Assembly (NCBI RefSeq): GCF_029867415.1
Contig: NC_081185.1
Span: 80,821,553 to 80,885,552, forward strand
DNA length: 64,000 bases
DNA from: Vicia villosa
Taxonomy: Eukaryota; Streptophyta; Magnoliopsida; Fabales; Fabaceae
Direction: 5' to 3'
The notes under the pieces were generated by a model that did not search any database, had not been told where the DNA came from, and saw nothing but the letters and a program-made list of their open reading frames with translations. Positions 24,151-54,486 of the stretch are shown here, piece after piece (position 1 is the first letter of the stretch; every line of letters starts with the position of its first letter). A program made the position numbers and the translations under genes.

Positions 24151-24533
24151 GTTGCCCCTATTCAATCTTCTTAAACCTGAAGAGATTGTCTGAAATCTGA
24201 AGGTAGAAGATGATTGAATATTTAGATGCCCTGAAAATTTGCACTTACCTTGATCGGAAGAGATGTTGGAAGTTGCATTTGAATGTCGTCTGCGAAATGT
24301 TGTTGGCAGATTGAAACATTACCTGAGATGGGCTTTCAGATGCCACCTGGTAAATGTGTCGATGGTTTGTTCATCAGAATGAATTCATTGATTATATCTT
24401 GATGAAGGATTTGAAAGTCTTTGCGTTGACTGTTTCGGAACCGTCCAAGGTTACCGCTTTAAGTCTTGGAAGATGTTCGTTACGGAACTTGTCCAAAGTT
24501 TTTCCGATTTAGATGTTGGAAGTTGATCTTTGT

Positions 24534-24815
24534 GGAACCGTTTGAGGTATCGCTTTAGATCTGCAATATTAAATCGTTCTGGAACCGTCTGAGGTATCGC
24601 TTTAGATCTGTGATGCTAGATCGTTTTGGAACCGTCTGAGGTATCACTTTAGATCTGTGATGTTAGATCGTTCTGGAACCGTCTGAGGTATCGCTTTAGA
24701 TCTGTGATGCTAGATCGTTTTGGAACCGTCTGAGGTATCGCTTTAGATCTGTGATGCTAGATCGTTTTGGAACCGTCTGAGGTATCGCTTTAGATCTGTG
24801 ATGTCTGTTTTTGAG
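24534..24815. repeat. Six tandem 47-bp repeats in element C
   Basis: ggaaccgtctgaggtatcgc begins units at 24581, 24628, 24675, 24722 and 24769, with a diverged first unit at 24534; the spacing is exactly 47. Each unit also contains gatct...agatc, a 5-bp stem with an 8-nt loop, which in the first unit has one pair changed. Confidence 0.93.
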
Positions 24816-25910: not shown

Positions 25911-26053
25911 CCTAGGCTGCCCTTTCAGGTTTTCAGCCTACCGGGATAGTATTTGTTTAGTCTCTAATTTTTGCCTGGACCGCCCTTTCGGGTTTTCAAT
26001 CCACCGAGACGCTCATTTTTGCCTAAGTTGCCCTTTCAGGTTTTCAACTTAGC
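25911..26053 (-). repeat. Three covarying hairpin repeats downstream of integrase in element C
   Basis: Each unit is tgcc, a 7-nt arm, a 14-nt loop cccttt(c)(a/g)ggtttt, then the second arm. Arms are taggctg/cagccta, tggaccg/caatcca and taagttg/caactta. The first and third are perfect; the second pairs fully on the minus strand using two G-U pairs. Arm sequence changes while the loop is conserved. Confidence 0.8.
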
Positions 26054-26071
26054 GAGCTGTTTTTTTTCTTT

Positions 26072-29000: not shown

Positions 29001-29545
29001 TGTAGCCCACGCACATTCTGACTTTCCCGTCTTTTTTAGGTACAGGGACGATGTTAGCTATCCAAGGAGGATAACTTACAACTTTTAGGAATCCGGCATT
29101 GAACTGTTTTTCAACCTCGTCTTTGATCTTTTTTGACATATCAGGCCTACTCCTTCGTAGTTTCTGTTTGACTGGAGTGCTACCTTCTTTGATTGGCAGG
29201 CGATGAACTACGATGTCCGTGTCAAGGCCTGGCATATCCTCATAGGACCAGGCGAATATCTCGACGTAGTCTCGCAGCATTTGAATCAGTCTTTGCTTGA
29301 CGCTGTGTTCTAAATCAGCCCCTATTTTGACTTCTTTCATTTCTTCGTTGCTGCCTAAGTTGATGACCTCAATTGGCTCCTCATGAGGCTGTATGGCCTT
29401 GTTTTCTTGTTCTAGCAGCCTTGCAAGTTCTCTTGGCACTTCACAATCTTCCTCACTTTCGTCCTCAGTTTGGTAGATCGGATTTTCAAAGTCATGACGG
29501 GCAATAGCAGAATCGTTGTTGACTGGATCCAGAGTGTATGTGAAT
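26072..29545 (-). CDS. pol: Ogre RT-RNase H-integrase (exon 2), broken by one frameshift
   Basis: The frame opens just after a TTTGCAG acceptor (29546) and runs through PRELARLLEQ and the RT fingers (VPVPKKDGKVRMCVGYRDLN, FSFMDGFSGYNQI). At an 8-A tract (28846-28853) it shifts. The next frame carries PFGLKSAGATYQ, the RT active site YVDD, RNase H (FDGASNALGNG, NIAEYEACILGL, GDSALVIYQV, QLADALA) and integrase. Integrase has a zinc region with H-H and CHKC, then GIDMIGEI, ITDNGTNLN and a catalytic E in AVEAANKN. The stop is at 26072, without a chromodomain. Total is about 1,150 codons, typical for Ogre. The frameshift makes this copy non-functional unless the tract length is a sequencing error. 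Confidence 0.92.
28846..28853 (-). other. Frameshift at an A8 tract in element C RT
   Basis: On the minus strand an 8-A run follows ATGG. Upstream the frame reads MAPEDMEKKQ and soon leaves the RT consensus. Downstream RT sequence (TTFTAPWGTFCYKV) is in the -1 frame. The two open frames overlap across the run (28804-28924). Confidence 0.88.
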
Positions 29546-29803
29546 CTGCAAATTAATTATGTGAGTATGTGTGAAGAAAAAACATAGCTATTTGAAAGCG
29601 AAGAAAGAAGGAAAAAGGATCACAAAGTTTAAATATGCAAGCGTCCCATGATTTTATTGAATGCACATGATCATGATATGATAAGCCCTTATAGAAGGAC
29701 CAGTGTACTAAGGCACACGGCTTTCAAGCTCATGGTTCGATTGTTCAGGAACCACTTTTATCTTTGCACATTATACACAAAGAAAACAGGAAATGGCATT
29801 TAC
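29546..29803 (-). other. Putative Ogre intron between protease and RT
   Basis: 258 nt with donor GA|GTAAAT at 29803 and acceptor TTTGCAG|A ending at 29546. Splicing would remove the stop at 29800 and join gag-protease to RT in phase. Published Ogre elements have an intron at this position. Confidence 0.75.
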
Positions 29804-32800
29804 TCCTGGTCAAAGGAGATCACATCCTCAGCTTTCCAGTTGTTCAATCCACTGTTGTGAGCAGGGGGTACCCAGCTGTTCCAGTTGCAGTTGTCTTTTT
29901 CATCTTCCACAGCATTGATTTCATTAGTGGGAAAATGAGCCGGTGTTCCTTCGGGATAAGTGATATACTCTGCTGGATACGAGAGCCCAGGCTGAGATAT
30001 CTCTGTTGGCTGAGCGAGGTGCTCGATAAGGCCGTCCCATGAAGTCGGGATGATGTTTTGAATAGAGACTTGTGCATCTTGATGAGGAGTGTATGCTGAC
30101 AGAAAGCAACCCTCGTTATTTGGTGTTTCCCTGGCTTCTTCGAAAGCGAAATTGTCATCGTAATGTTCATCCCATCCAGTTGGGACAATGTCCTCCATAG
30201 CAATATGTGAGCTTGGAGGAGCGGAATATTTCACCATATAGTCATATTTGCCGCTGGGTTCTCCTAGCGTGTCCCATACTTCTTTGGGTGGATTTTGATA
30301 TTGCTCAGTGACGGAACTTGTGAAACTTTCGTCATTTCCAATTTGATCACCCCATCCAGTCGGGGTAAGGTCCTCCATAGCAATATAAGAATTTTGAGGT
30401 GTGGCATACTGATAATTATACCCGCCGTTTGGTTCTTGAACAGCATCCCACATTCCCATGGAAATGGGTGGAATATCATCCGGATATGGCTGAATGATAT
30501 GGTTCATGAACACTCCTTCATCTTCAATAGCGTTTACTTCTTGGCTGACGAAGTGTGACATCAATCCTTCAGAACGAGGACTTTGATCATTCTTTTGATT
30601 TTTGCTATCATAGCCCAGGCCTAGCTTGTCAAATTTGTAGGGTATATCGGGAAGCTGTCCCCATACTGTGCAATCACCCTGTTCAATCATGGCTTTGGCA
30701 TCTTTGAGAGAAGCCATAGCTGTAGTTGGAGTAGCAGGAATATGCTTGGTGGTAGAGACATCTGGGGAGACCACCTCAAATGATTGGCATGGAGTTTCGA
30801 TGAATTCGTCCTCCAACTCAACATATTTGGAATTGCTTAGGTGACTAACCACATATTCCTCTTCGCCATAGACTGTGACAATCTTTCCTTTTACTGGATA
30901 TTTTAACTTCTGATGCAGGGTAGAAGTTACAGCGTTTGCCCCATGTATCCAAGGGCGTCCAAGTAAACAGGAGTAGGCTGGGTGAATTTCCATTACGTAA
31001 AAGATAGAATCAAAGATTTGAGAACCCACTCTGATTGGGAGATTCACTTTTCCGTATACCGTTCTGGTTGAACCGTCAAAGGCTCTTACCACAACATCAC
31101 TTGGTTGTAACACAATTCCTTCGAAGTCAAGCTTTTCTAGTACTGTTTTTGGTAACACGTTCAGAGAAGAACCGTTATCTACTAGCACATGAGATAGAGT
31201 GGTGCCATTACATTCAATGGAGATATGTAAGGCTTTGTTGTGATTTTTTCCAGCAGGGGTTAGATCCACATCGGAGAAACCGAGACCATTGCTCACGGTT
31301 AGATTGGCAACACAATTCTCAAATTGGTCGACTGAGATCTCTTGAGGCACATGCGCAGCTTTCAGGAACTTCATCAGGGCTTTGGCATGAGCTTCTGAAT
31401 ATTTTAGCAGAGATAGCATTGAGATTTTTGAAGCGGTGTGCCCCAGTTGCTCAACAATATTGTAATCACTCTTGCAGATGATTTTCAATATTTCCTCCAT
31501 TTCTTGCTTTGATGGATCCTCAGCAGTGATCTCCACCGGGGTTTGAACTTGTTCAACTTGTGGCTCTTTGCCTCGAGCGTTGACATTTTGATTAGGAACT
31601 GGAACTCGGACTGGACCAGCAGCAACATTTGGAGAAATTTCTGGTGAAAAGATTCTTCCACTTCTCGTGATCTTGCTGGTACCCACAATATTACCCACAG
31701 TTGGAGTAGTTAACTTTGCGGTCTCTTCAGTCGAGGTACTCTGCTTAACTCCATGAACATAAACATTAGCGTCATATCCCCATGGGACAGCTTTGTCTGA
31801 GGAGTATGGAAATGGAGTTAGACTAGCAATGACTACTGATGCCACTTTGAGTGTAGCAAAAATTTTGAATGGAACCTTGGCAGAGATTTTGAATGGTAAG
31901 CTGGAGATCACTGAGGCATCCTCTATTTTTACCCCGTTTGCAAAGACTTCGCACAGCACGTCCATAGAAGGGAGCCTCTCAAACATAATGATACGGCGAT
32001 CCATCCATTTTTGAATTCCCATCCTCAGATTTTCACAACCATTGGGCAGGCATGAGCAATAAAAGCAGTCGGGGTCACATCCTGGGAAGTAACCAGCTCG
32101 GATTAGCTTTCCTTTGACTTCGCAGAGTGGAGTTGATAATTCGTTCACATCATAGATGTAAACAGTGTCCAGGATAGCATTAACAGTTTTGTCATGCTTT
32201 GGCATAGGTGCAGTGATGACATTTGGAGTTTCTGGAGGATCGAACTCAATTTCACCAGCATCTATCATATCTTGTATTTTATTTTTCAGGGCCCAGCAGT
32301 GATCTGCGTCATGTCCTGGACAGTTTGAGTGATAGGCACATGTCGCATCAGGGCGATAATTCGGAGAGGAAGTGTTGACATTCTTTTGAGGACCTCTTAA
32401 GGTGATCAGATCTGCTTTTAGCAAGTGTTGCAATGCCTGAGAGATTGGCATGTTGATTTTGGTGAAATTTCTTCTTGGTGCATCTGGTCGATGCGTATAT
32501 TTTGGCTGTTGATCTTTTTGAGGTGCAGATGCGGAGATCAGAACTGCCCCTACAGATTGATGCTGCTCACTTTTGTGACTTTTCTGAATTTGTGTTGCAT
32601 TGACCTCATTTCTCCCGCTGATGGGCCTTTTTGTAGTACCAGAGGAGGTACCTATTTGAATTTTTCCATTTTGAATGCCACTTTCGACACGTTCTCCGGT
32701 CAGTATCAGGTCAGTGAAACCTGATGATGAGCTTCCCAGCAAATGGCTATAGAAAGGGCCAGTTAAAGTGCCCATGAACATGTCAACTAGTTCGCGATCA

Positions 32801-33621
32801 GATAAGGGTGGTTGAACCCTTCCAGCCATATCTCTCCACTTTTGTGCATATCCTTTGAAACTTTCTTTTGGTCCCATAGACATGCCCCTTAGTTGAGTAC
32901 AGGTTGGCGCAAGATCAGCATTGTACTGGTACTGTTTGTAAAAAGCAGCAGCTAATTCTTCCCAAGTATGAACCTTGGTATTTTCCAGCTGGTAATACCA
33001 CTCGAGTTGTGTACCCGACAGACTTTCTTGGAAGAAGTGAATCCACAATTTGTTATCTGTTGTATGAGGTTGTATCTTCCTCACATAGGATCTCAGATGT
33101 AGTTTCGGGCAAGAAACTCCATCATATTTTGCAAAGACTGGAACTTTGAATTTTGGAGGGATAACAACATCCGAGATGAGCCCTAGATCATTGAAATCTA
33201 AGCCAGGTATTTTTTGTATCTCCATAGCTTTCATACGGTCTTCCAGCTGTTGGTATTTTTCATCATCCGGTTCGTCCCCAGAATGATCATTTTCTTCATT
33301 TGAAGAGAGAGAGGGTTTAGCAGAACCCTGGTTGCTTTGATTGTCTTCTTGTTCATCATCACCGACTATCTCAAGGATCGGTGGCTTTTTGAACTTTTTG
33401 ACTGGAATTTTGATCTTTCTTCTCAGGTGACTCACGCCTACAGATCCTTTGGGCTTCTTTTTCTTCTTGATTATCAGGGCTTTCAGTTCTTCTTGCCCCT
33501 TTGCCAGTTCCAGAATTGCCACTTGGACTTGGGCATTCTGTGCTTCGAGATTCTTGATACTCATTTCAGATTCCATCTCTTCTGACTGAAATAAACAGCG
33601 AGAAGATGAGAAATCCGTCAT
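29800..33621 (-). CDS. gag-pro: Ogre gag-protease polyprotein (exon 1)
   Basis: 1273 codons. The N-terminus is acidic/basic with coiled-coil character (residues 16-130), followed by the gag retrotransposon domain at about 180-300 (SGTQLEWYYQL, WEELAAAFYKQYQYN, ESFKGYAQKWRDMAGRV). A zinc-knuckle-like CAYHSNCPGHDADHC lies at about residue 427. The aspartic protease D-N-G (LVDNGSSLNV) is at about residue 814. The last 250 or so residues are acidic and contain a repeated segment of 45-60 residues with a PT(G/S)W core. Reading is intact to a stop at 29800, but the spliced message would leave this frame at 29804 and continue into RT. It lies 255 nt downstream of ORF1. Confidence 0.92.
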   Translation of the reverse strand: MTDFSSSRCLFQSEEMESEMSIKNLEAQNAQVQVAILELAKGQEELKALIIKKKKKPKGSVGVSHLRRKIKIPVKKFKKPPILEIVGDDEQEDNQSNQGSAKPSLSSNEENDHSGDEPDDEKYQQLEDRMKAMEIQKIPGLDFNDLGLISDVVIPPKFKVPVFAKYDGVSCPKLHLRSYVRKIQPHTTDNKLWIHFFQESLSGTQLEWYYQLENTKVHTWEELAAAFYKQYQYNADLAPTCTQLRGMSMGPKESFKGYAQKWRDMAGRVQPPLSDRELVDMFMGTLTGPFYSHLLGSSSSGFTDLILTGERVESGIQNGKIQIGTSSGTTKRPISGRNEVNATQIQKSHKSEQHQSVGAVLISASAPQKDQQPKYTHRPDAPRRNFTKINMPISQALQHLLKADLITLRGPQKNVNTSSPNYRPDATCAYHSNCPGHDADHCWALKNKIQDMIDAGEIEFDPPETPNVITAPMPKHDKTVNAILDTVYIYDVNELSTPLCEVKGKLIRAGYFPGCDPDCFYCSCLPNGCENLRMGIQKWMDRRIIMFERLPSMDVLCEVFANGVKIEDASVISSLPFKISAKVPFKIFATLKVASVVIASLTPFPYSSDKAVPWGYDANVYVHGVKQSTSTEETAKLTTPTVGNIVGTSKITRSGRIFSPEISPNVAAGPVRVPVPNQNVNARGKEPQVEQVQTPVEITAEDPSKQEMEEILKIICKSDYNIVEQLGHTASKISMLSLLKYSEAHAKALMKFLKAAHVPQEISVDQFENCVANLTVSNGLGFSDVDLTPAGKNHNKALHISIECNGTTLSHVLVDNGSSLNVLPKTVLEKLDFEGIVLQPSDVVVRAFDGSTRTVYGKVNLPIRVGSQIFDSIFYVMEIHPAYSCLLGRPWIHGANAVTSTLHQKLKYPVKGKIVTVYGEEEYVVSHLSNSKYVELEDEFIETPCQSFEVVSPDVSTTKHIPATPTTAMASLKDAKAMIEQGDCTVWGQLPDIPYKFDKLGLGYDSKNQKNDQSPRSEGLMSHFVSQEVNAIEDEGVFMNHIIQPYPDDIPPISMGMWDAVQEPNGGYNYQYATPQNSYIAMEDLTPTGWGDQIGNDESFTSSVTEQYQNPPKEVWDTLGEPSGKYDYMVKYSAPPSSHIAMEDIVPTGWDEHYDDNFAFEEARETPNNEGCFLSAYTPHQDAQVSIQNIIPTSWDGLIEHLAQPTEISQPGLSYPAEYITYPEGTPAHFPTNEINAVEDEKDNCNWNSWVPPAHNSGLNNWKAEDVISFDQE

Positions 33622-33876
33622 GTGAACCTGTTATGAAATGTGTATGACTGGATGCCATGCAATGTATGAAATGCAAATGCAATGTATATGAATGCAATGT
33701 ATGAAATGTATATGCAATGCATGAAGTGAAATGTGTGTGCAATGTTTCAAGGATCTTAGAGTTTAGATTTGTTAAAGAAGAAACAAACGTTAGTTAATCA
33801 ATTTATTTCTCTTTTTTTTTGCTTCTTTTTTTCTTTGCCTCATTTGGGCTTACAAGACAGAAAAATAAATGATCCT
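33622..33876 (-). mobile_element. Spacer between Ogre ORF1 and gag
   Basis: 255 nt, rich in short reiterations of atgcaatgtatgaaatg (33655-33740) and a pyrimidine/purine-biased stretch. No gene. Confidence 0.6.
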
Positions 33877-35196
33877 TCAGGTCTCCCGTGGACGCTTTCT
33901 CTTTGCCCCCAGGAATGTGTTGATCTGTTGTTCTTCTTGAAGCTGTCCGGTGAGCTCCAATATCCTTCTCTCATAGTCTTGACAGTATGATTTGAAGGTG
34001 TCTCTTTCCTCTTTGAGTTGAACCCAAGATTTTTGCAACTCTTCTAGGTCAGTTGGCATATCCGGGTGTAGAATAACTTGAGGTTCATATCCTTCGACCT
34101 CTGGTTCAATAGTCACAGGTAGAACAGCAGGATATGGCATAAGGAGTTTCTGAGCATGAGTGCGGACCCATCTGAGGTAGGGTTCCATAGGAATAGAATT
34201 CCATTGCCCCAGAGTTTTGCTTTCTATTCTATAGACACTGCCCCATGCATGTATGAACCTTCGTCGGTGTCTATGAGAATCATTCTCGTAATCAAACACA
34301 ATGCCATGGATAATCATGTCATGAGGACCGTTGCTCCTTGCATATCCGAATTGGCGTAGAGCTAAAGAGGGATTGTAAGTGATGCCTCCTTTGATGCCAA
34401 GGAGTGGCACATTAGGGTATTCTCCACAATGATCAATGATAGTAATGTCTCTTTGAAAGAAGTTGTTCCACCGGATATCTGAATGAGACAAAGACATAAT
34501 CCTGTGAGACCATTGAATTCTTTGTTCATTTCTCAACACTGATCGGGGAAGATGAAATGTAAACCATCTAGCCAATAGTGGTATACAGCACATGAGAGTT
34601 CCTCGTTTCTTCATGGTACGAGTGTATAGAGAATGTAGAATGTCTCCCAGCAATGTTGGTACCGGGTTACGGATTAGGAAAAGGTTGATGATGTGTACAC
34701 TTATGAACTGGTCGGGATTAGGGAATAAAACCAACCCATAGATCAAAAGTGCCATAACTTCCTCAAAAGCTGGATAACTTTTGTTTTCTAGCAGTAGTCG
34801 AGCCTTTTCCAATAAGAACTTGGCAAGCAAACCCTCGACTCCACTCTTTGTTTCCCAATTGGACTTGATTTCTGATTTCCGCAGATGTAAAGCAGCGGCA
34901 ATGACTTCAGGTTTTGGAATCCTTTCTAAACCATTGAAAGGTAATTGATTTCGAACAGGCAATCCCATTAGTTCAGAGAATTCTTCCAAAGTGGGTACCA
35001 ACTGGTAATCAGGAAAGGTAAAGCAATGATGTTCAGGGTCAAAGAACTGGAACAAGACCCGTATCATATCTTCTTCAAATTTTGAGGTAACCAAATGGAG
35101 TAGGTGACCATGCCTTTCAGTGAATTGAACATTCCTGGGGAATTCTGGTACCGTTGAGATGTTGATTCGGATGTAATCTTTGGTGGCGGGAGCCAT
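33877..35196 (-). CDS. Ogre ORF1 (plant-mobile-domain-like protein upstream of gag)
   Basis: 439 residues from MAPATKDYIRIN. The frame is open 33 codons further upstream, but that part is leader-like, and an ATG context directly follows TTTGCAGGTA. It contains HGHLLHLVTSKFEEDM, a block DYQLVPTLEEFSELMGLPV typical of plant mobile domains, conserved RWFTFHLPRSV and HDMIIHGIVFDYE. The C-terminal coiled coil (about 385-430) ends in a basic KRKRPR patch that may act as a nuclear signal. Ogre elements characteristically carry such an ORF of unknown function before gag. The frame is intact. Confidence 0.85.
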   Translation of the reverse strand: MAPATKDYIRINISTVPEFPRNVQFTERHGHLLHLVTSKFEEDMIRVLFQFFDPEHHCFTFPDYQLVPTLEEFSELMGLPVRNQLPFNGLERIPKPEVIAAALHLRKSEIKSNWETKSGVEGLLAKFLLEKARLLLENKSYPAFEEVMALLIYGLVLFPNPDQFISVHIINLFLIRNPVPTLLGDILHSLYTRTMKKRGTLMCCIPLLARWFTFHLPRSVLRNEQRIQWSHRIMSLSHSDIRWNNFFQRDITIIDHCGEYPNVPLLGIKGGITYNPSLALRQFGYARSNGPHDMIIHGIVFDYENDSHRHRRRFIHAWGSVYRIESKTLGQWNSIPMEPYLRWVRTHAQKLLMPYPAVLPVTIEPEVEGYEPQVILHPDMPTDLEELQKSWVQLKEERDTFKSYCQDYERRILELTGQLQEEQQINTFLGAKRKRPRET

Positions 35197-35846
35197 TACC
35201 TGCAAAAACAAAGGTAAACTCTTTGATCCTTGAAGTGTTTGGTGCAAAAATGATATGCTTATGATGCAAACATGTGGCACACAAAAACAAATCAAACAAT
35301 AGCCTTAGGTTTAAAGGCTTGCATGGAGCTGATAGGTGATACCCTCCCCACTGAAGTTGAGTTGGTTAAAACCTGTCCTAGAATAGTATTCGGGTTCTAT
35401 GATCCTTGGAAGTAACATCTCAATACGGTGCTCGAGCGGCCGATCAAAATATTCCTCGAGGATAACTAACTTCGATCAATTTCAAAGCTAGCCACTTAAT
35501 AGGCCACAAGTCAAGTTCAACTAAAAAGGTTCTAAGACAAATTAGTGTTTAATGACATTTCGGAAGCCTAATATACTCCTTGATCGTTTTCAAGGGACAT
35601 CAGTATAAACCAAAGTATCACACTAATGATGACTACCAGATCAACCGTATCGGTACATGCCGTACAGTTTCCTTGGTCTATTGTCATATACTTAAGGTAT
35701 CTCGAGATTCGGGTTAGAATCTTTCACACAAGCAAAATACCCAAGCAAACCTTTGAAAGATAAAGCAATCAAATCAACCAATTGAAAACATCGACCTATT
35801 CTCTTAAGGTAACCCCTTTTGAAAACATTGTGTTTTTGAAAGTAAA
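35197..35846 (-). mobile_element. 5' leader of element C
   Basis: 650 nt between the primer site and ORF1, non-coding and without clear repeats. It may be partly intronic, since TTTTTGCAG directly precedes ORF1. Confidence 0.55.
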
Positions 35847-35864
35847 TCCCCAGCAGAGTCGCCA
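35847..35864 (-). other. Primer-binding site of element C
   Basis: TGGCGACTCTGCTGGGGA on the minus strand, 4 nt from the LTR 3' end. The Ogre primer is reported as tRNA-Arg; an identical site serves element B. Confidence 0.88.
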
Positions 35865-38355
35865 GTTCTGTGGACCTCCGTTTTTTTAATCCGGGCCATA
35901 CCTCTGATCTGTAGAGATACGTGAACTGACTCTTTTTTATCGCTTAATGCTTTCGCATTTCTGAAAATATCACAGAGTCGCCACCGACCTTTTATTTTAT
36001 CCAATTAAGGAAAGGTTTATAAAAGACACAAAAAAGACCTTTAAGAAATTCTGGGTAAGGGGGTAGGTTATACAAAGGGAAGGTATTAGCACCCTTTGTA
36101 TCCATGGTTATCCATGGGCTCTTAAGTTTGCTTAGCTCACTTGTTTTTCGATCATTTTTTCAATTGCTCTGAAATTGCTCATATGTGGTTCCCAAATACT
36201 TTTGTAAATTGAATTTTGTAATGATTCGTGTGTGGATGTATACAAAATGCTTGTTTATCTTTCGAAAGATGTTTTGAAAAGAACGTTAACTTTGTAATAA
36301 TCCGTGTTTGGATGTATACAAAGTATTGTCTTTTTCGAAAGTTTTGTTTTGAAAAACAACAGTGTATGAGAATTTTGTTTGTGTTGATTTGAGCAAGCAA
36401 ACTAGGAGGTCTACCCTGAGTTATAAGGTCTTTATCTTATTTCCTTTAAAAATCTATCCTTTCACCGGATATAAAAGCAAGGTTCGATTTTGTACTCAAA
36501 ACAGTAGAATTTGACTTTGATTTTGAAAGATTGTGAAAGGGATTTACCTTAAGAGGTGCAAATGTGATTGTGATTGGATTCAGATATTTATCTTTGAACT
36601 TTAGTGATCTAACGGTTCAATTTTATCTTTGACATACACGCAGTTTATATTTGCTGGAAATTAAAATGCGGAAATGTAAAGTGCGGAAAGTAAATCTACG
36701 CTATTACATCGATTGTGCAGAAATGTAAACTAGCCTATTTACATCAATTTGACATCCTATACATTTATCTAGGAATTTAAATTGCAAGAAAAATAAAAGG
36801 CATGTTTTTGGATTTTTTTATGATTTATTTTAATTATAATTAATGCAAGATTAATTAAATTAAAATGAAGAAAAAAGATGAAAATTGATTTAAACCTAGA
36901 AATTAAGTTTAAAATATGTACAAAAATATTTGTCAATTAATTTTAAAACAAAACTAATTTTTTTGGAATTTTTGAAAATGATTTGAAATTGATTTAAGTT
37001 AATTAAAACATAATTATGCAAATAATTATACAAATAATTAAAACTTAAAGATAAAATTATTCAAAATATTTACAAAATTAGTTTATAATATATAAACAAT
37101 ATTTTATATAAAGAACAATTTTTTTTATGATTTTTTGATTGGTTAGAATAATTAAAAAGCAAATATATAAATATATACTAATTAATTATGCAAAATATTG
37201 AAATTTTGAAGAAAAATAAAATATTTTTATTTCAGAAAATAATATATTATTTTAGAAGTCTAAAAATATTTTTTGTGTATTTTTTGGATTTTTAAAACTA
37301 TTTTTAATTAATTTAACAAAGAAATTAAAATAAAATAGAAAATAAAATAGAAATAAAAGGATACTGATCCTGTGTGGTAGGCTGGAGAGTGCATGATAAG
37401 GATTGTTTGATCTGGCGCGTTGGATGAGTCATAAATGAAATCAGATGGTCCAGAAATTGAGGGAACATCACTTATGACGCGCCTGCAAGACACAGAATTA
37501 GAGAAAATTTAAAAAGTACGCGCGCGCTTCTGAACCAATGAGGTGGAGACACCTCATCGTCTTCAACCTCTCGCCAGGGGTTTTTACAGCGCTTTTATGA
37601 AACAAGCGCTGTAGTTGATGAACCTCAAACCTGCAAAATAGCGAATAGGGGTAAACGTGAAAATAAATTTGGCGCGACCTGTCAGTTCAATTCGTTTGGT
37701 CCATGCGAATTCAATGGTGCTAATTAGAACCTCTAATTTTGCCTAATTTGGAAAGCCCTAATTTTGAAGCTATGAACCCTAAAATGGTGATTTCGTTTAT
37801 ACGTGTCCAAACTTCAATTAAGTTTCCAGAAATGATCTACACCTCAAACCAAACTCAATAGTATGTCTACATCTTGTTAAACATGTGTGAATAACCAGAT
37901 ACGAATTGATTTTAGTTTGAACAATTTTTGACCTGTGTAGCTCGATTCAGTGAGCTTCAAGGCTTGTAATTGATTGAGATAGTTTCAGTGATGTTCAAGG
38001 AAGGTGTATGAATGCTTAGTTTGTATTGAAATGGACTGAAATTACAAATTCGAATTTGAGTTTTCTTTGAATTTTTTCAAGTGATTACAAAGGTGTTATG
38101 TGCTATGTATGCTTCTGAACTCGCCTCTCCCTTGTTACTGAACTAAGATAGCTTATTCATAATCTATGTGTGCTTAGAATTGAAGCTAATATGTGCCTTA
38201 GTTGCCTTTGTTGAAACTTTGGTTTTTTAATATTAAAAACCTTTGAAAAATTGACCAAGTCTTGCTCTCCTTCAATGCACCTGCCTTGCCCTTCAATTCT
38301 CTGCAGAAGATGAAGATTCCTTAGGGGTGAGTCATGCTTGGAAGTTAAGCTACCA

Positions 38356-38360
38356 TTATC
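38356..38360. other. Target-site duplication of solo LTR D (left copy)
   Basis: ttatc at 38356-38360 and 42559-42563; the intact 3' LTR of C has a single copy at about 21945. Confidence 0.93.
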
Positions 38361-38854
38361 TGTCGCACGCTCGCGAAAATGAACAACAGAGTCGCCACCA
38401 ATATATTTATCCCAAAGAGGGAAAGGAATATCAGAAAACCTAGAATAAGGATAAGAAAAGGTCTTGCGACCAAAGATAGGGTACGGAAGTCGGTTACGCG
38501 AGGGGAAGGTGCTAGCACCCCTCACGCCCATCGTACTCGATGGTATCCACCTATGTTTGTTGCTATCTAAAGGGTGTATAAATCTAAAGCTTAGTTACTA
38601 AGGGAATGCATGCAAATGAATGAAAAAGAAACACGGGGAAAATAAGGTTTATAAATAGTTGTGCTCGCTTAGGCCCCGCGACCCAATGCCTATGTATCCT
38701 TTTCAGGAATCAGAGCGCCGTAGTTCGGCTCTTTAGTTTTTGTTTGTTTTTGTGTTTTTTAGTGGACGAAGTTACATTCGCACTCCGCTGCTCGACCTCT
38801 GGAGTCTTAAGCTGGGAATGGAGCGGAAATAACGTGTCCGATTAGGAGAAAGAA

Positions 38855-39052
38855 TGCCCTGAAGGCAAGAGAAAGAATGCCTCGGGGGCAAGAGAGAGAA
38901 GAAAGATTTTGAGCGTTTCGAGGAAATCCCTTAAGCAAGGGAAACTCGAGTTACTCTTTGGTTTGTGTTTTTTAGAGGTTGGGAACTTACGCATGAATGG
39001 AACCCTTAAGCAAGGGAGCCCCAAGCACTCGAACATCCCTTAAGCAAGGGAA
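38855..39052 (-). repeat. Short hairpin repeats in solo LTR D
   Basis: Two TGCC/GGCA stems (near 38855 and 38878) and three cccttaagcaaggg units (near 38929, 39003 and 39027). The unit near 38929 is embedded in a longer foldback with an outer tcgag/ctcga stem. They lie in the LTR portion close to its 3' end. Confidence 0.65.
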
Positions 39053-40908
39053 GTTACAAACTTCCATTCCCTTTTTATTAGTCAAAGTATTTATTAGTCA
39101 TTTTTTATGAGTTTTCTTGGTATTTTTTATGGGAAATTTATTCAATTATTTTTAGATGTTTTAAGTGTTGTAAAAGAAAAGAAACTAGCCTAAGTGAAAA
39201 TTAGCCTAAGTATGAAGGGAATTTCTACCTAATGTTATCATGGTTTCTACCTAAGGTTAGGAATAAAAGAAACATGAAAATAAAGTCACAATTAGAAGTC
39301 AATAGTGAGTAACACAATGGTACAAAAATTGGCATGCAAGCATATAGTAACAAGTCAAAAATATAGTACAAAATGAACCAAAAATACTACTATTTTTTAT
39401 ATTGATTTTTATGGGAGAAATTGAATTACAAGTCAAGTAAAAAGACTAAAACAAAATAGCCTAAAACTACTATTTCTTAGTGATTATTCTTTTTGTCAAA
39501 AAATTGGATTAAAGTCTCAAAATGATAGTGGAAAAATTAGCAATTAATCACTAAAAGAAATAGCAAAAAAAAAAACTAATTAAAATTAAAAATTAAAATG
39601 TGATCAGGGGTGAAAATTGAAGATAGTGGGGTGAATAGCAATTCAGGCGCAGGCCCAGGGAATTGGCCCACAGCACTGTTTTTGTTATCAGATTTTTCTT
39701 GTGTACCAAAAAAATGACAGTGACGGGCCACGGGGGGTATGAACAGTAAAACGGCCCAAGATCTCTAATTATTATTGTTTTCAGACTTTTTATTATGATC
39801 CATTAATTCAATTAAGACTAAATTAATACTAATTAAACCAATTAAACACAATTAATCATAAAATTAATTAAAAGAAAAGAAAAGAGGAATAGGGAAAAGG
39901 GATTGTGTCGTTTCAGATTCTTTCGTTCACTCATTCTCGTTCTCACCTCTCTCAGACCCAAACAACTTCGCCGGAAATCGCCTCCCGGCGGCGACCACGG
40001 CGGAGACGCCTTGAAACACCACAAACCTAGCATAGCCTTGTTCATCTCCTTCGGCTAATTTCGAATCCGCCCTCATTTTCCCTCAATTTCCACTCGTTTC
40101 ATCCTGAATCTAAAACCCTAAGTTAAACTGAAAGCTCAATCAAACGGCAATGGAGGCGAATTGAAGAGCGAAACCATGGGGGAAATGCTCATAAACCCTT
40201 ACTCTTCACAACAGTATCGAGAACGAGTAAAGAAGGCGAAGAATGAGTGTTCGTAGAACTCACCTGAAGCGAAGGTCACGGTTATGTCACTATTGGCGAA
40301 ATAAACGCGAGGAAGACTTCACGTTAGGTATGCTTGCTTACTCTGCTCCTTCTTGCGCTATCTTCTTCTTCGATTTCTTCTTTTTGCCTTTTGATTTACG
40401 ATTCTGAATTGAGCTTCGTCGGTTGCGTAATGTCGTTGTTGCCGATGAAGATATGAAGGCGATGCGAGGGTGATGAGGATTGATGAAGAGAGTGTAGCGG
40501 AGGGAGTTCAGGGATGAAGATCGAATAGAGTGTGCGAAGGTTATGGTGATTGAAGGTGATGAGTTTGTTCGTCCCGATTCTGCTACAAGGTGAATTCTTT
40601 TCCTCTTTTGATTCTCTGTTGTTGAGTTTTCATCGATTTTCTGCAGGATTCGTGGCTTTTTTGGTGAATCTTTTTTTGAGTTTTTGGTTTATGGTGAGTT
40701 GTTGAAGGTGATGGATTTTCAGAATGTGAGAGAAGGTTAAAGATGATGAATTCAGAGAAGGGTGAAGTGAAGAAGATGATGAAGATGGAAGAGTTGTGGT
40801 AGAGAGGAGAAGAAGAATGGTGGAGAAGTGGTGGATGGTGCGTGAAGAATGGTTGAGAAGTGAATTGTGGAGAAAATGGTGGAGAGCTTGAATGAAGGAG
40901 GAGTTGAG

Positions 40909-40919
40909 TTTATATAGAG
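40909..40919 (-). promoter_or_regulatory. TATA box in solo LTR D
   Basis: CTCTATATAAA on the minus strand, about 1.64 kb inside the LTR 5' end, followed by a CT-rich leader-like sequence. It may remain a promoter in the solo LTR. Confidence 0.5.
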
Positions 40920-43900
40920 ATTTCTCAAGGTTAGTTCCTCTGAATTTTTCTGTTATCTTCTGTTATAGATGGTTAGGGTTGGTTAAAAGTTGGTTAGAGG
41001 TTTGTTATAATTCTGTTAGAAGTTTCTGTTGGTTAGGTTAGTTATGAATTCAGTTAGGAGGTTAAGAGGTAGTTATTGGTTAGTTAGGAAACTGTTATGA
41101 TGGTTAGAGGGTAGTTACAAAGCTGTTATGAGTGAATGATTCTGTTAGACTCTTCTAATTGGTAGTTAGTGAAACTGAATTCTGTTTGATGTGCTGAACC
41201 GATTTTTGAACTTATGTTGAACCTGTTGTTATTTTCCTTTATGACTTCCTTATTCAATACTCCGATTTTCCCTTGATTCAGATTTCTCCTTTTGAACAAA
41301 TGAAAAGCTGCTAGTAACTTCTTTAACATGACTGGATATGAGTGTTGTAATGGACTTGAAATATCTGTAGAATTTTTGTGGTGATGACAATATCATGGTT
41401 CATTTGTAAAGCTGATCATGTATGCTGTTTTCTTTTGTTAAGCAGGGAGTTTGAATTTATTTCAAATGGAAACCTGTGTGACATAGCCAATGTGTAATGG
41501 TAAGTGTATGAAGCTGTTATCAGAAATGTTAGGAATGTTTGGTATGGCTTTGAATGTTGTGGTTTATCTTTTTTGTACAGGGGTGATTAGAGTGAATATG
41601 AGACAAGATGGTGCAATGTCTTCATGGATGGGGCAATGGTTGTTTGGACAAGAAGACGTTCGAAGTCGGAGGATGTTCAACTGTGCATTCGAAGATGACA
41701 GCCGAGGACCGACTGCAGCTTTTCTTTTTTTATGTAGTCTCAATTTTCTATTTCTCTTTTCAATGTACCTGGATGAATTCTGAATGTAATTTGGCATTGA
41801 GGATGTGTTAGAATTAAAACATGTAAAAGGAATTGAACTTGGAGCTTGAAAGATGTAGCGAGACTTTTCTTCAAAAGGAATTTGACTTCTGTGCCATTTA
41901 CTTATTTCAATGCGTGAACACAAAAAGGATTTGCATCTTAATCTTCCAATTAACTGTTGTCTCAATACCTTACAATAGAATAAGCAAGTTTTGACCAATG
42001 GTTTTTTTTTTTATACCAATATTCCTACTTCAATTGGTGGTGAGACTCACATGACTCAAACTTCACATGATAATAAGAGCCTTACTCCATGGTCAAACCT
42101 AAACATAGCAGGTGGTTCTCAACCCATGATTCATGCTATCTTGATTAGTGAACCAGCTCCTGTAGATAAGAAAAAACCAAATTGAGCCTTGAAGTTGGAA
42201 TGTACCACTCCAAGGTCACATAGCCCCCTTGACTATTACAAGATTAGGGAAATAAACCCAAGATCAAGAAACCCATATACATGGAAACCATCTGATTGAA
42301 CGCCTTTCAAAAGACCTGTACCAATCGCATTCTCGATTAAGTGCCAAACACCCTTCCTCTCTTTTTTTTGAAGAAATGAATGACTTTTTGCCAAGATCTA
42401 TGTGGAACTCCAATTTGTTTCATGACCCTTAATCCTTTGGCAGTTTATTAATTAATGAATGCATGGGTTATGTTAATACCCTAATGGAAAGATGCAGATG
42501 AAGTGAGAAACTTTAAGCCAGTTATAAATAAATATAGGGCAAATTTTGGGGTGCAACATTATCCATGCATTTTCCTTTTAATTTTAATCTTAAAGTAAGA
42601 TAAAATCATGCAAAAAATGGATAAAAAAGGTATGGGCTTAGTCTTGGTCGTGGGAGGCCCATAATAACATGGCAAAGATGTTTGAACCATAAAAACTTGG
42701 CCCCTTTTGGAAAAAATGCCATTTTGAACAATGTTGGTTTCATGCATTTTCCAAAATTTAGCCAACTTTAACAAGGTGTAAATCCCTCAATTTTTGTCAT
42801 ATGAAGGAGATCTTGCACTTTTTGGAAACCTCAAAGAGTCCTCTAACCAATGCCTTTGGTCTCATGTCAAAATGATTTTTGATGCTCCTTGTGTGTCCTT
42901 TTGAAAAAAGTGTCTTTTTGTTGACTTTGAAAATGACCTGTAATGTCTTTGGTCATATTTTTCAAATGGTGAATGCAATGACTATGGGATCAATTGCATT
43001 TGAAATATAATTGAATTTACTTCAAAATGAGCTTTGGTTTGAATTTTTTGGATGAAGGATGAGAGAGTTATGATCAGTCAAAGTTGAGTTGACTTTTCAG
43101 GCAAAAACCCTAATTTTGAATCTTAGAGTTTTGTTGATTTTTGATCTTTCCTTGATGAATTATGATCATCCAATGATCAAATGATGAATCCTTTGACAAA
43201 ATATGGACTTTGACAAAAAATTTCATTTTTGACTGTCTGTTGACTTTTTTGGTCAAACGGGTCGTCTGTTGACTGTTTGAGCTGCTGACGGTGCGTCTGA
43301 ATGAATTGAAGTTTGAAAATTTGTATGATGGTACTTTGAGATATATGGATGTGTATGAAATCCATTTGAGCTCTCAAAAACTTGTTGCTCCTGTAAAAAC
43401 AAGAAAAACCCTGATTAGGGACTGTTTGTGTAGGAGACAGTTAAGCGTACCTGATTTTTGTGCAGTGTTGAGTCTCTGCTAATCGCGTGATATTCAGAAG
43501 ACTTATAGAACAAAAATCTTGGAATTTTGAATTGTGAAAGATTGATTTGATTGATGGTACAAAACACTGAGAATTGTACTGCCAGCAGTTTGGCTGTCGA
43601 CTGACTGTCCAGGTATTGATGTAGCAGTTAGAGTGAAAAATCAACAGTCAAAGTTAATTTTCTTTTTTTTTGTTTTTGTTTTTGTTTTATGTGAAAAATG
43701 AAAGTTTATTTACATGACTTGTTAAAAAAACATAGACATAATAAATAACTAATATTTACGGTATGCGGGCAAAATTACCGATAATAACCCTGAAAATCAT
43801 TTAATGCACAGAAATAGGAATATTTGACTGGCAGAAAACACACAAAATATTATCTTAGTAATTAAGCAATATTATGACAAATAGTACAACATTTAATACT

Positions 43901-45319
43901 GACAGTACAAATATTACATACTATATTGAACAGTACGACGAATAAACGGTACATTTAAGAAATAAGAAATACGGCAAATTTTAAGAATGACGATTGATAA
44001 CCCATGCTATGAACAATAACATGTAGATGATTGGGAGTGCAACCATTGCAGGTCCACACTCTTCAGGACTATGCAGGCAGAAGAAAGTCATGATCACCGT
44101 AGCAATGGTGATGACTGTAAGAAATAATGTCTCTATCCATTTTGCCATTCTTGTCAGAGAAGAAGAGAAAATAGATATGAGGTAGGAATTTGAGAGATGA
44201 ATTAGAATTTGATGTGAGATTTTATGGAAGAAAATGAGAGGTATTTATAGAATGGAAAGAAGGATAGAGACGTTGGGGAATAGTGTGATTCCGTACAAAA
44301 GGAAAATTTGAGTGGAAATAAGATTTGAAAGAAAGTGGAGATAGTGTTGGGAAAAAGAGAGATTTGATTTTTGAAAAAGAGATTTGAAAAGATTTTTGAA
44401 AATAATGGAATATAGTACAAAAATTAGTGGGAAACAAAAGATAATAATAATCTACTTGTTACCAGTACAGTCTGAGTTTCCTGATTCTGCGCCTGCAAAA
44501 AGATTTAACTCTGTACCAATTGTGTCAGTACTATTTATCTGTAAATAAATAAATAGCATGTGTGAAGTAATAAACAGCATTTGGCGTTTGCGTAAGAATA
44601 AATTCAACTGCAAGCCAAATTGCTGTATAAGAAAAATTCTAAAAACTAAGTATTTCATATGTCAGGATATTTATTGAAATAAAAATCCATGATTATATGA
44701 GACTCTTAATTTTCAGATTGGAGTTTTCTTGAAAAAAGATGCGGGCAAATTTTGGGGTATAACAGATAGGCACGTCTGCCTATCGTGATCTAAAGGTAGA
44801 AGATGATTGGACACTGAAATGCCCTGAAATTTGCATGGGAAGAAGTTCCGTAGGAGATGGGCTTATAGATGCCATCCGAGGTGAATACCATTTTTTCAGA
44901 GTGAAGCAAAAATGCCTTTTTTTTTTGAACCAGGTGCTTCGATTGTAGCATAGCCTAAAAAGGCAACCTTGTCTTTATGCAGTGTTTATGATGCATGAGA
45001 TGCATGATGCAGCGAGCTTCTCAAAATAAATGAGAGCGGTGTATGTATATGCAATATGTATGAATGAAGTATGTTAGTTGTATGATGCATGATTGTTAGT
45101 TATGTTAGTAATTCTGAAAAGAAAGATAAAAACTTTGTTTGTTGTTGAAGTTTTGGAGAAGATCACTGCCGAGGGACTAACGTGATAAACCCAATTGAGG
45201 GATCGTTTGAAAAGCCTTGTTGTATAATCCTTTGTATAACCTTGCGCTCAAGTGTGAGAGAAGAGAACCGTCTTGCTAAAGCCTGAGTCTTACATAGCGA
45301 GGATTTGTAAGAGGGATCA

Positions 45320-45762
45320 CTTGTTATGATTCTAACAAGCTCACCTGCACCAATAGGATCATTTGCGAGGGTTATCGCAAACTCACCTGCACCATTAGGA
45401 TCCTTCGCGAGGGTTATCGCGAGTTCGCCTGCACCATTAGGGTCATTTACGAGGGTTATCGCAAATTCACCTGCACCATTAGGATCCTTCGCGAGGGTTA
45501 TCGCGAATTCACCTGCACCATTAGGGTCCTTCGCGAGGGTTATCGCGAATTCGCCTGCACCATTTAGGATAATTTGCTATGCTCATAGCAACTTCGCCTG
45601 CACCATATAGGATCATTTACTATGTTTGTAGTAAACTCACCTGCACCATTTGGATCATTTGCCCTGGTTCAGACAAATTTCACCTGCACCAAAGGAATTA
45701 CCTGCCATGGCTCTGACAAGCGTACCTGCATAAGAGTAATCATTTGCTATAGTTCTAGCAAA
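45320..45762 (-). repeat. Hairpin array 1 of element B (eleven 42-43-bp units)
   Basis: Units start at 45320, 45362, 45404, 45446, 45488, 45530, 45573, 45616, 45658, 45701 and 45743. Each has a 7-nt arm, a 6-nt loop and a complementary arm, separated by a conserved (a/t)cacctgcaccattaggatc-type linker. Arms include cttgtta, tttgcga, ttcgcga, tttacga, tttgcta and tttacta with matching partners. Confidence 0.93.
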
Positions 45763-50335: not shown

Positions 50336-51162
50336 CGTGGGGATACCTGCAAAATCGAAACGCATAGATATTCAAAGTATATAAATTGCAAACATATAAA
50401 GAGCACAGCAGCACAAAAGTCCTAGGTTCATATGTTCGACGTAGCGGCTCTTGGGAGCCAACCTTTTTATAGGGGGGTTCTAGAAGGTCTCATGGGGTCG
50501 TTCGTAGCCTCCGAGACTTTTTGTCTCTTCGGATTTTAGAACAACTCATTTTATCCATGAGGTTCGAATTTTTGGGGTAGGTTCTCGGAGAGATCAGCCA
50601 AGTATCCAGTCCTGCCCTCAACAAAGTCAAGCCTCGTTTTGGACATTTCCGAATACTCAACCCACTCCGAGTGGAGTTATCAGTGAGACTCGTAGGCGAT
50701 TCATGTCCCCTTTTGATCTCAAAGTTAACTCCCACACTTAGGTTTAACAACGATCTTATATATCCCAGAAGATGCAATAGAAATAAAAATATTCACTTAA
50801 ATAAATATTAAATTGCAGTGATGAAATTGCAGAGGAAAATAAATAAATAAATAAAATTTCAATATTTGAACTAACCTCGAAATCCGGCTGCTTACGGTTT
50901 ACAAAATGCAATGCACATCCAATATTTAAATAAACATTCATTATTTAAATAAACAGGTATTTATTAATTGATGTAAAAGGTGAAATTTTAAATAAATAAA
51001 TAAAATAAAATTTTTAAATATTTACATATAAAGAAAAATAAACCCTAATTTTGGCTAATTAGCCAAACCCTGAAAATTTCGCCAAAAACCTAAACCGTTT
51101 GCCACAAACCTAAACCTAAACCCTCTCAAGCCTTAGGAGCATAGTAATTCACTGTTAAGTTA

Positions 51163-51180
51163 TCCCCAGCAGAGTCGCCA
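51163..51180 (-). other. Primer-binding site of element B
   Basis: TGGCGACTCTGCTGGGGA on the minus strand, 2 nt from the LTR 3' end at 51183; identical to that of Ogre C. Confidence 0.88.
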
Positions 51181-51182
51181 GC

Positions 51183-54100
51183 TGTAGCAACCTGCCTAAA
51201 AATTAAAACTTAGAGAGTCGCCACCTATTCTGAAGGGCGAATAGGAAACCCTACGCAGTATAGAGATCAGGGTAAGATACTATATTCAGGTCGAGGGAAG
51301 GTGTTAGGCACCCCCAACCCTTTCCTAAAGGCTAACATTTCAAAGATAAAGGTTTATGGCAAGGTTTATAGCTAAGGAATTGAATAGGAGAAAAATTGAG
51401 ATTTTAGGGAGGGGGACTCGCCTTGTTGCCAAGTGCCTACGTATCTCCTTAGGGAGAATTAGAGTCAACGTAGTTCGGGCACAAGATTGTACGCCTTAGA
51501 ATTGAATTGAATGTGGTTTGAAGTTGTTTTGAAATTGTTTTTGAAATGCGAATGTTCGAAGGTATTTTGAGTTACCTTATCGTAGTTATGAACATCGCAG
51601 TGTTGAAGAGATGAAAATCTGTAGTATCGTGGTTTAGTGTTTTAAGATTCGGGCGTACAAACCTGATTTGATATGGCACTATTAACCGCAATGATCAATA
51701 GATTCGATCACCATAGTTAACAGATTAGTAAAGTATTGCTGGCAATTCTAATCGATTGATTCGATTATCACTTTTAGCAAATTAAAGTATTTTAATTATT
51801 AATTTATCGTTACCCCTCATAATCGATAGATTCGATTACAAATAATAACGAATTGATAAGGGGAAATATGCTAATCATCATAACCAATAAGATGGTTAAA
51901 ACCATTTAGCAAAATAATTATTATTTTAATTATTGGATTTGATTAAATAATTAATCGATTATTAACCATTGCGACCAATAGATTTAGTCGGAACGAATAA
52001 TAAATTAAATCCTAATGTTTTGATACTTTAGCCCCAAATGGGAGGGAGCAAACCCTAATATATTAATATATTTCTCTAGGGTTGTTGTGATTTATATAAT
52101 TGTTTAAACCGATTAAATAAATTAAATCGGATTAGTCGGATGATCAAGAAAATAATCCTAAGCCTAAATCTAATTTAATTATATCAATCCTAATTTTATA
52201 AGTTAATTAAATTAAATATTAATATTAATCTAAATAAACAATAAAACAAATAAATAAATAGATGCATAGGAACCTGGCACCAATCTTATGTGGTTAGCCC
52301 TTGAATGCCCATGGTAAAGGTGCGGATGCTGTACGTTAGATCAGGACTATGGGAAATCCTGTGGCTGACACTGAGGGTGCGTGATAGTCTTGTGCTGGCT
52401 GTGTGCACTGAATTTTGGATTGTGACCCTGCAAAATAAATCCACAAAATAATGTCGGGGCTATGAGTAGAACCCATGCCCTTTGAGTTAAACACGCCTTT
52501 GCTTACCACTAGGCCAAATCATGGATTGGTTAGTCATATGGAAACAATGATTCAAATAAGAAACAAACGCCATGATGGCTTAGTCAAAGAATAGTCTTCG
52601 TGGGCCCTTCGTTAATGGTGCTGCAGCCAATAAAAGCAGAGAGAGAAGTCTGAAACTTCGACCAACCATTCACACTGTCCCACGCGTGCTCCTTCTCCCT
52701 CGTACACTGTTCACCTCCTTCTTCCTCGTACCTGCGGATCCACCTTCGGGCTTTGCTGCTGAAATACCTGCGGATTCTTCAAGAATCCATGGCCAGCCAT
52801 GGCAGCGTTCAGCACCTGCAAGAATCAAAAGAAGGCAACGCCAAATAAACCCAGATCCACCAAAACCTATGCTACGAATTCAATGGTCGCGTTAGTTTTG
52901 ATTAACAAGGACTAGAACTATGAATATGAAGCAGGAGAATGCTTATGCCCTAACAATGGCATATCCTTACCCCTGCGCTAAACCTTCAAAGCAATGGTTC
53001 TAATTGACTCTAAACATTATTATGAATTCAAATATATGCACGGAATTCATTTAAACACCATGTATCACCAGTTTGAGATTCTAGAAAGATGCAAACCGAT
53101 GGTGTTTGAGGGAGACGATTCTGTTATGCTTTTACCTTGGATGAATGATTGTATCGCCTCCTGGGAGTCTGGGGAGATTGAAGAGAAGTTCAGAATCGGC
53201 TGAGTGTGGCTCCTCCTCCTTGTTCACGTTTGCCCTAGACCATCCGTTTTTTATGAATTTGCTAGGGTTCTTTTAAGCCAGATTTTCGTCCCCCCCCCCA
53301 CATACTGCATGCTTTTGTAATATATATGGATCCAATTAGGGTTAAAACATGGGAAAGAATCATGGGAATAATTGATACAAAATTGATTGGAAAATTTGCA
53401 TAAAAACATTCTATTTTTGGTTCCACCATATCTCTTTCTCTCTCCACGAAATTTCCTTGATTTGATCTCAATATATTTCTCCAAATTTGATAGCAATGAG
53501 ATCTTATTCCAATCTTTGGTTATTTTTATCATTTATTTAGCTTATATTGACTTTTTATGAATAAAAATTCAATATAATAAAAATAAATGAGTAAAAAAGA
53601 GAGAATGGAATTATGGGCTTCTAATGCATTCATGATCATGTTTAGAAACTCAAACCTAGGCCCATTAGTCAAAATAAGTGGTTTTGCTCAAATTGACTTT
53701 TGTGTATTTCTCCAAAATCAACCATCTTCAAAGCCTTGTATCTCCTTCAGTTTTAATCATATGAAAGCATTCTAGAACTTTTTAGAAAGCTAAAAGAGTC
53801 ATTTAAATGAACTTTTTGGTTTCATCTCGATTGAAGTTTCCAAACTCATGTTATGAGCTTTGACCCAAAAGGTGTTTCTTGTTGACTTTTGAAGGGACCT
53901 GTAATCTCTTTGACCATATCTTCCAAATGGTGCATTTCTTGATCTTGGGCCCAACATCAAAGTTGTAGAGGATGAAATTTCCTTGAGAATAGGCTTTGAG
54001 TGGGGAATTTCTGATACTCCATGTAGAAGTTATGGCCAGTCAAAGTTGAGTTGACTTTTCCTATAGAAAACCCTAATTTGAACCTTTGCATTTGTTCATC

Positions 54101-54481
54101 TCTGAGTTTTTATTAATGGATCATGATCAACCTTTGATCATATGATGGATATGGCCTCACATACTTGATGTTGATCAAAAATCTTGAAGTTTGACTGTAT
54201 TTTGACTATAGTTGACTTTTAGGTCAACACAGTCGATTATTGGTTATCTGAGCCATTGAGCGAGCAATCCTTGGGATAGAAGCTTTACTTTTGATATGGA
54301 GATGCTTTAATACATGTGAGACACCTTGGGATCCATTTGAGACTTTAGACACTCAACTTCCTTTGATAACCTGCAAACCCTAGTTTTGAGACACCCTATT
54401 AGGAGAGAGTTGCTTGAGAAGAAACCCTGAACCTTGAGTTATTGGAGATGAAAAGAGGAGGGCAAATTTTGGGGTATGACA
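51183..54481 (-). mobile_element. Element B 5' LTR
   Basis: 3299 bp, nearly identical to 16111-19414. The C tract near 53290 is 10 long versus about 18 in the other copy. It contains the second copy of the tRNA-like module (52464-52516, minus) and the same possible TATA element at 52090-52098. Reading frames seen in it are duplicated in the other LTR and match nothing recognised. Confidence 0.93.
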
Positions 54482-54486
54482 CCCAT

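What the first reader, a model, noticed from the sequence alone, without database searches (positions are those of the whole stretch)
45320..45762. Tandem hairpin array with covarying stems in a gene-less Ogre-like element
Eleven 42-43-bp units each form a 6-7 bp stem with a 6-nt loop. Arms differ between units (cttgtta/taacaag, tttgcga/tcgcaaa, ttcgcga/tcgcgaa, tttacta/tagtaaa, tttgcta/tagcaaa), so pairing is kept through paired changes while the linker stays constant. Units at 45446, 45658 and 45701 have five A-C mismatches on the plus strand, all of which become G-U wobbles on the minus strand, the sense strand of element B. The unit at 45404 is the one case that favours the plus strand, and the unit at 45573 has one outer mismatch on both strands. 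This points to selection on an RNA structure, for example packaging, dimerisation or stability of a non-autonomous genomic RNA.
Basis: partly seen in the sequence, partly recalled or inferred. Interest (0 to 1): 0.93.

Follow-up and report, generated by a model that had tools for sequence, protein, structure and literature searches.

The report
Covarying hairpin array in Ogre RNA
A row of small RNA hairpins near the 3' end of a gene-less plant retrotransposon keeps its pairing through compensating mutations, and is also found in gene-bearing relatives, so it looks like a working RNA signal of the mobile element and not junk.

Summary
In detail: eleven hairpins at 45320-45762, with five G-U and one A-C on element B's sense (minus) strand. 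In 567 distinct units from 100 locus records, hairpin columns rank 1st, 2nd and 4th of 861 column pairs by mutual information. In 51 divergent hairpins all seven pairs have two-sided changes; covariation score 0.562, shuffled 0.233. A context-symmetric test gives G-U over A-C 64:32; other counts are weaker (26:19; 66:41), the terminal hairpin shows none (5:8), and controls are mostly but not wholly clean. B is gene-less. Of 46 distinct array loci with long flanks, 43 have B-like flanks and 3 have Ogre integrase upstream; their terminal hairpin differs from B's at two compensated pairs. In the pieces fetched, coding relatives share with B only the LTR, PBS and leader (to 50414) and the array. 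The leader holds a second covarying structure (50584-50732). Best reading: a cis-acting 3'UTR RNA element kept by coding and gene-less partners, most likely for packaging or other recognition in trans. RNA-level selection is supported; function is inferred.

The parts
51183..54481 (-). 5' LTR of gene-less element B
   Evidence: LTR pair, 99.2% identity with 16111-19414; TSD CCCAT
51163..51180 (-). primer binding site TGGCGACTCTGCTGGGGA (tRNA-Arg type, recalled)
   Evidence: identical in L155, two mismatches in L154
50414..50938 (-). leader segment shared with coding Ogre relatives (82% in L154; 85% in L155 from 50867 on)
50584..50732 (-). leader RNA structure: 52 pairs, 6 with two-sided changes in 17 copies (16 distinct); RNAalifold z -12.7 sense, -2.8 antisense in its best 150-column window of three copies
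45320..45762 (-). hairpin array: 10 units of 42-43 nt plus a terminal hairpin
45320..45339 (-). terminal hairpin CTTGTTA-gaatca-TAACAAG; CTTACTA-gaacta-TAGTAAG in coding relatives, CTTGCTA-gaacta-TAGCAAG in L014 and L068
46110..46710 (-). second tandem array with short hairpins (GTCTT-nnnn-AAGAC, ACCT-nnnn-AGGT); little covariation, no overall strand bias; used as internal control
19415..19427 (-). polypurine tract of B, next to the 3' LTR
16111..19414 (-). 3' LTR of B
19458..44835 (-). coding Ogre (element C) inserted in B between the array and the 3' LTR; without it 527 nt of B lie between them. No match to the array inside C

Best explanation
The array is a cis-acting element of the sense RNA of an Ogre (Ty3/gypsy, Tat) family. 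Each unit presents a short hairpin with a conserved AACC-type loop, next to a UGGUGCAGGUG linker; the stem sequence can change as long as it pairs. Gene-less copies (B) and coding copies carry the same array in the 3'UTR and the same structured leader. A trans-acting factor probably reads these modules, so that B is mobilised by proteins of its coding relatives. I think Gag/nucleocapsid recognition for packaging is the most likely use. SHOWN by sequence: hairpins, covariation, a moderate sense-strand bias, sharing with coding relatives, a second structure in the leader. INFERRED: that the RNA is bound, by which protein, and for packaging.
For: Covariation: ranks 1, 2 and 4 of 861 column pairs in 567 distinct units. 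In 51 divergent hairpins 93.5% of cells pair (shuffled 76.6%, slid 30-46%), 7 of 7 pairs have two-sided changes, score 0.562 against 0.233 shuffled. Strand: G-U against A-C 295:72 over distinct units and 30:8 over 58 representatives; context-symmetric single changes 100:45 units, 88:41 change-by-locus, 64:32 change-by-context. Controls: C>T and G>A rates are alike in the downstream flank (0.047, 0.049; 44 rows) and the leader (0.0232, 0.0229; 14 rows); array 2 overall gives 56:48 and 55:40 contexts. Predicted hairpin pairing 0.63 sense, 0.35 antisense, sense higher in 40 of the first 40 arrays folded. Loop AACC 90-97% conserved while the most variable stem pair has 42-44% major bases. Coding relatives: 4 loci (3 distinct) with integrase upstream of the array. 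Their fetched pieces share with B only leader and array besides the LTR. Their terminal hairpin differs from B's at two pairs, both compensated.
Against: No RNA or protein data. Single-step changes are nearly balanced (26:19, 23 other mismatches; shared 9:5); tree counts 66:41; the terminal hairpin has G-U 5, A-C 8, and of its 47 distinct segments 25 pair fully, 2 with G-U, 14 have one mismatch and 6 more. The array bias lies mainly in C>T over G>A (78:30) and less in A>G over T>C (22:15); the short upstream flank (12 rows) has C>T above G>A too (0.0287, 0.0178). Array 2 has A>G above T>C (40:20 and 46:28 units) though not C>T above G>A (19:29, 11:14). Units are related by descent, so p values are optimistic. 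Pairs (6,17) and (3,20) rank 616 and 462 of 861. The linker's conservation is partly built in, since units were cut at it. Sense RNA may fold better partly through base composition. Ogre C in the window has no such array. All copies are from one genome; the middle of the coding relatives was not read.
Confidence: 0.55

Rival explanations
1. Mutational upkeep without function: imperfect hairpins are corrected by template switching during reverse transcription or DNA replication (one arm copied from the other), and hairpins promote slippage that makes tandem arrays.
For: Explains double transversions such as G-C to T-A without intermediates (11 internal branches on the tree of non-stem columns), and why more than one array in B consists of hairpins. 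Ogre 3'UTR repeats are thought to arise from abnormal strand transfers (PMC7004042, passages).
Against: Predicts no strand bias; array 1 has one overall, though modest. Array 2, in the same RNA, shows little covariation. Loop conservation is unexplained.
Confidence: 0.22
2. The hairpins protect or route the RNA (3' end stability, nuclear export, escape from small-RNA silencing), with no role in packaging.
For: 3'UTR position, variable copy number (8-25 units in the first 40 loci), sense-strand bias. A structured RNA would do this in coding and gene-less elements alike.
Against: Leader and array are the internal modules found shared with coding relatives in the pieces fetched, which fits replication signals at least as well; a conserved loop suggests a specific binder.
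Confidence: 0.15
3. Repeated U1-binding or decoy splice donor sites: unit junctions read CAG|GTGAGT, and the stem modulates their access.
For: 489 of 901 unit junctions read CAGGTGAGTT, a full match to the 5' splice-site consensus (recalled).
Against: Noticed afterwards, untested; does not by itself explain covarying stems; other junction variants are common.
Confidence: 0.04
4. A palindromic DNA-binding site or cruciform, acting in DNA.
For: Palindromes form in both strands.
Against: Arm sequences change while pairing is kept, unlike a sequence-specific site; G-U is more frequent than A-C on one strand.
Confidence: 0.04

Closest known systems
Hypervariable 3'UTR tandem repeats of Ogre and other Tat elements (Macas et al. 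2009, cited in PMC7004042; source of FabTR satellites)
   Same: Position downstream of gag-pol, tandem units, variable length.
   Different: In the main text of PMC7004042 the words hairpin, secondary structure and palindrom- do not occur; only passages were read. Here each unit is a covarying hairpin. Macas 2009 itself was not held.
Retroelement packaging and dimerisation signals (Ty3, Ty1, retroviruses)
   Same: Structured leader; Ty3 packaging needs both UTRs and POL (PMC11381356, passages).
   Different: Signals there are placed in the structured 5' end (same passages); here many copies of one hairpin lie in the 3'UTR. No packaging was measured.
Non-autonomous LTR elements mobilised by coding partners (general knowledge)
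   Same: B keeps LTRs, PBS and PPT without genes.
   Different: B also keeps two covarying RNA modules in common with coding relatives.

Membership tests
Ogre/Tat LTR retrotransposon (element B) | LTR pair with TSD, TG..CA ends, tRNA-Arg-type PBS, PPT | tested here: met
   (tRNA-Arg assignment recalled)
Ogre/Tat LTR retrotransposon (element B) | Tat-lineage reverse transcriptase | tested here: not met
   tblastn of C gag-pro, pol and ORF1 against B internal: no match; lineage rests on LTR and leader similarity to coding relatives, so B is filed as a gene-less relative
Ogre/Tat LTR retrotransposon (element C) | ORF1, gag-protease, RT-RNaseH-aRH-integrase | tested here: met
   Pfam hits DUF7745, Retrotrans_gag, Asp_protease_2, RVT_1, RT_RNaseH, RVT_3, rve
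Hypervariable 3'UTR tandem repeat of Tat elements | tandem array between coding region and 3' LTR | tested here: met
   L061, L067, L069, L070: integrase, then array, then LTR
Evolutionarily conserved RNA structure | compensatory changes beyond shuffled and slid controls | tested here: met
   array; leader
Known Rfam family | match at gathering score | tested here: not met
   44000-54500: only a sub-threshold XIST_A_REPEAT hit at 48080-48105
Packaging signal | needed for RNA entry into particles | not testable with these tools
   no expression or particle data

The most novel reading that the evidence does not exclude
The leader structure and the 3'UTR hairpin array form a two-part, multivalent packaging code of a plant Ty3/gypsy lineage: Gag counts hairpins, gene-less elements raise their share of particles by expanding the array, and stem sequences diverge while the loop stays fixed.
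Probability: 0.27. Interest if true: 0.88.

Novelty: new variant of a known kind. Interest (0 to 1): 0.75.

Why it matters
Ogre elements make up a large part of some legume genomes (45% of Lathyrus sativus, PMC7004042 passage), and their 3'UTR repeats seed satellite DNA (same paper). If such repeats can be functional RNA hairpins, their spread has a selective cause and not only a mutational one. It also gives a concrete candidate for how gene-less plant retrotransposons are recognised by coding partners.

Tried and rejected
Array 2 as second support: it has hairpins, but its stem columns rank 21-242 of 378, distinct cores give GU:AC 65:81 and 88:67, and the symmetric test is not significant overall; kept as a control. 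Loop-linker pseudoknot: no loop-linker column pair is among the 20 best by mutual information; dropped. A wider version of the strand test with extra parents gave 109:33 contexts; set aside because one old lineage inflates it. The four-parent test (69:35) counted some units twice; one search assigns each unit to one parent. tRNA genes in 44000-54500: none. Two leader fetches (L152, L153) landed in other elements and gave nothing. Literature: (listings only); PMC7004042 and PMC11381356 seen as passages; Macas 2009 not held. No report of covarying hairpins in Ogre 3'UTRs was found in those eight searches. On re-checking, the flank, terminal-hairpin and array 2 details weaken the strand argument a little; I lowered the best explanation from 0.58 to 0.55 and the novel case from 0.28 to 0.27, and raised mutational upkeep from 0.20 to 0.22 and the DNA-site rival from 0.03 to 0.04.

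Full report
Setting. The window lies in an unnamed 2.03-Gb genome. Element B has LTRs 51183-54481 (5') and 16111-19414 (3'), 99.2% identical over 3304 aligned positions, with a CCCAT target duplication, PBS and PPT; it is minus-sense. A coding Ogre, C (19458-44835; ORF1, gag-protease, RT-RNaseH-integrase), sits inside it. B's internal region has no match to C's proteins.

Observation. The eleven hairpins are there as described, with five sense-strand G-U, one A-C and one outer mismatch. Perfect stems of 6 bp or more: 8 seen, 0.62 expected from shuffles.

Copies. Searches of the genome (only the 40 best of 1515-2769 candidates are scored per search) and tight fetches gave 139 loci, of which 100 contributed units. 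1061 units were kept, 439 with identical context and 8 of odd length were dropped, leaving 567 distinct units. Units were cut at the linker with up to three substitutions allowed, so linker conservation is partly built in.

Covariation. The seven inner pairs rank 1, 2, 4, 25, 97, 462 and 616 of 861 column pairs. The two lowest vary mainly by G-U. In 51 divergent hairpins all seven pairs show two-sided changes; 65 cells against 18.5 in shuffles; score 0.562 against 0.233, and 0.08-0.13 when slid. Among unit pairs two changes apart, 37 of 1794 have both changes on one stem pair where 15.6 are expected.

Strand. Over distinct units G-U 295, A-C 72; over 58 representatives 30 and 8. Each arm of a perfect palindrome gives the same sequence context on opposite strands, so a transition giving G-U has an exact mirror giving A-C. 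With each unit assigned to one parent: 100:45 units, 88:41 change-by-locus, 64:32 change-by-context, p 0.0014. It lies mainly in C>T over G>A (78:30) and less in A>G over T>C (22:15). Controls: C>T and G>A are alike in the downstream flank and the leader, but in the short upstream flank (12 rows) C>T is higher (0.0287, 0.0178). Array 2 gives 56:48 and 55:40 contexts overall, with C>T not above G>A (19:29, 11:14) but A>G above T>C (40:20, 46:28). Other counts: parent-child single steps 26:19, shared 9:5; all-column tree 22:13 internal and 44:28 terminal; non-stem tree 7:2 and 103:65; terminal hairpin 5:8. The bias is moderate, and non-independence makes p values optimistic.

Anatomy of the unit. 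Loop positions 2-5 (AACC) are 90-97% conserved; stem columns run from 42-44% (one pair) to 99%. Predicted pairing is 0.63 sense and 0.35 antisense, higher in sense in 40 of the first 40 arrays folded; base composition of the linker may add to this.

Coding relatives. Of 70 array loci with long flanks, 66 have a B-like upstream flank; collapsing repeat fetches and identical copies, 43 of 46. The other four (L061, L067, L069, L070; the last two identical) have the end of an Ogre pol gene, 60-78% identical to C's, upstream of the array and an LTR 73-79% like B's after it. Pieces about 10 kb upstream of two of them hold LTR, a PBS, a leader and part of ORF1. Between these pieces and B's internal region, sensitive BLAST lists only 51182-50414 and 45783-45252 (matches of 40 nt or more). 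The middle of these elements was not read; that each pair of pieces is one element is inferred from order, strand and spacing. The terminal hairpin is CTTGTTA/TAACAAG in B, CTTACTA/TAGTAAG in the coding loci and CTTGCTA/TAGCAAG in L014 and L068, all fully paired. Of all 47 distinct terminal segments 25 pair fully, 2 with G-U, 14 have one mismatch and 6 more, some of these not being this hairpin.

Leader. Within the shared leader, 50584-50732 folds into a long branched structure: alifold z -12.7 sense and -2.8 antisense in its best window (three copies, 30 shuffles). In 17 copies (12 of the 40 listed, plus B, L138, L139, and L154 and L155 from beside coding loci), 52 pairs, 99.3% of cells paired, 6 pairs with two-sided changes against 2.0 shuffled. 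Rfam has no match.

Reading. A coding and a gene-less element that share little else in the parts read keep the same leader structure and the same 3'UTR hairpin array. That is what cis-acting replication signals should look like. In Ty3, packaging needs both UTRs and POL (PMC11381356, passages). I therefore favour recognition in trans, packaging first, at moderate confidence, with mutational palindrome upkeep as the main rival. Ogre 3'UTR repeats are known to be hypervariable (PMC7004042, passages); covarying hairpins in them were not found in eight literature searches (listings only).

Noticed in passing
window 49700-50400 (minus): Leader repeats of about 80 and 160 nt with several hairpins (for example TCCCTA-gccta-TAGGGA, GTCCTTC-ccac-GAAGGAC); 7 stems of 6 bp or more where 0.53 are expected. 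No match in the coding relatives' fetched pieces.
   Followed up: partly
window 45341-45691 (minus), unit junctions: 489 of 901 unit junctions over the copies read CAGGTGAGTT, a full 5' splice-site consensus (recalled).
   Followed up: partly
window 46984-47105 (minus): 26-nt tandem units carrying AACCT-cgaa-AGGTT hairpins.
   Followed up: no
window 24525-24803: Element C has its own array at its 3' side (47-nt unit, 5.9 copies); its region (24244-26071) shows no clear hairpin excess.
   Followed up: partly
window 38361-42556: A 4.2-kb insertion splits the right LTR of element C, with an ATTATC repeat at its ends.
   Followed up: no
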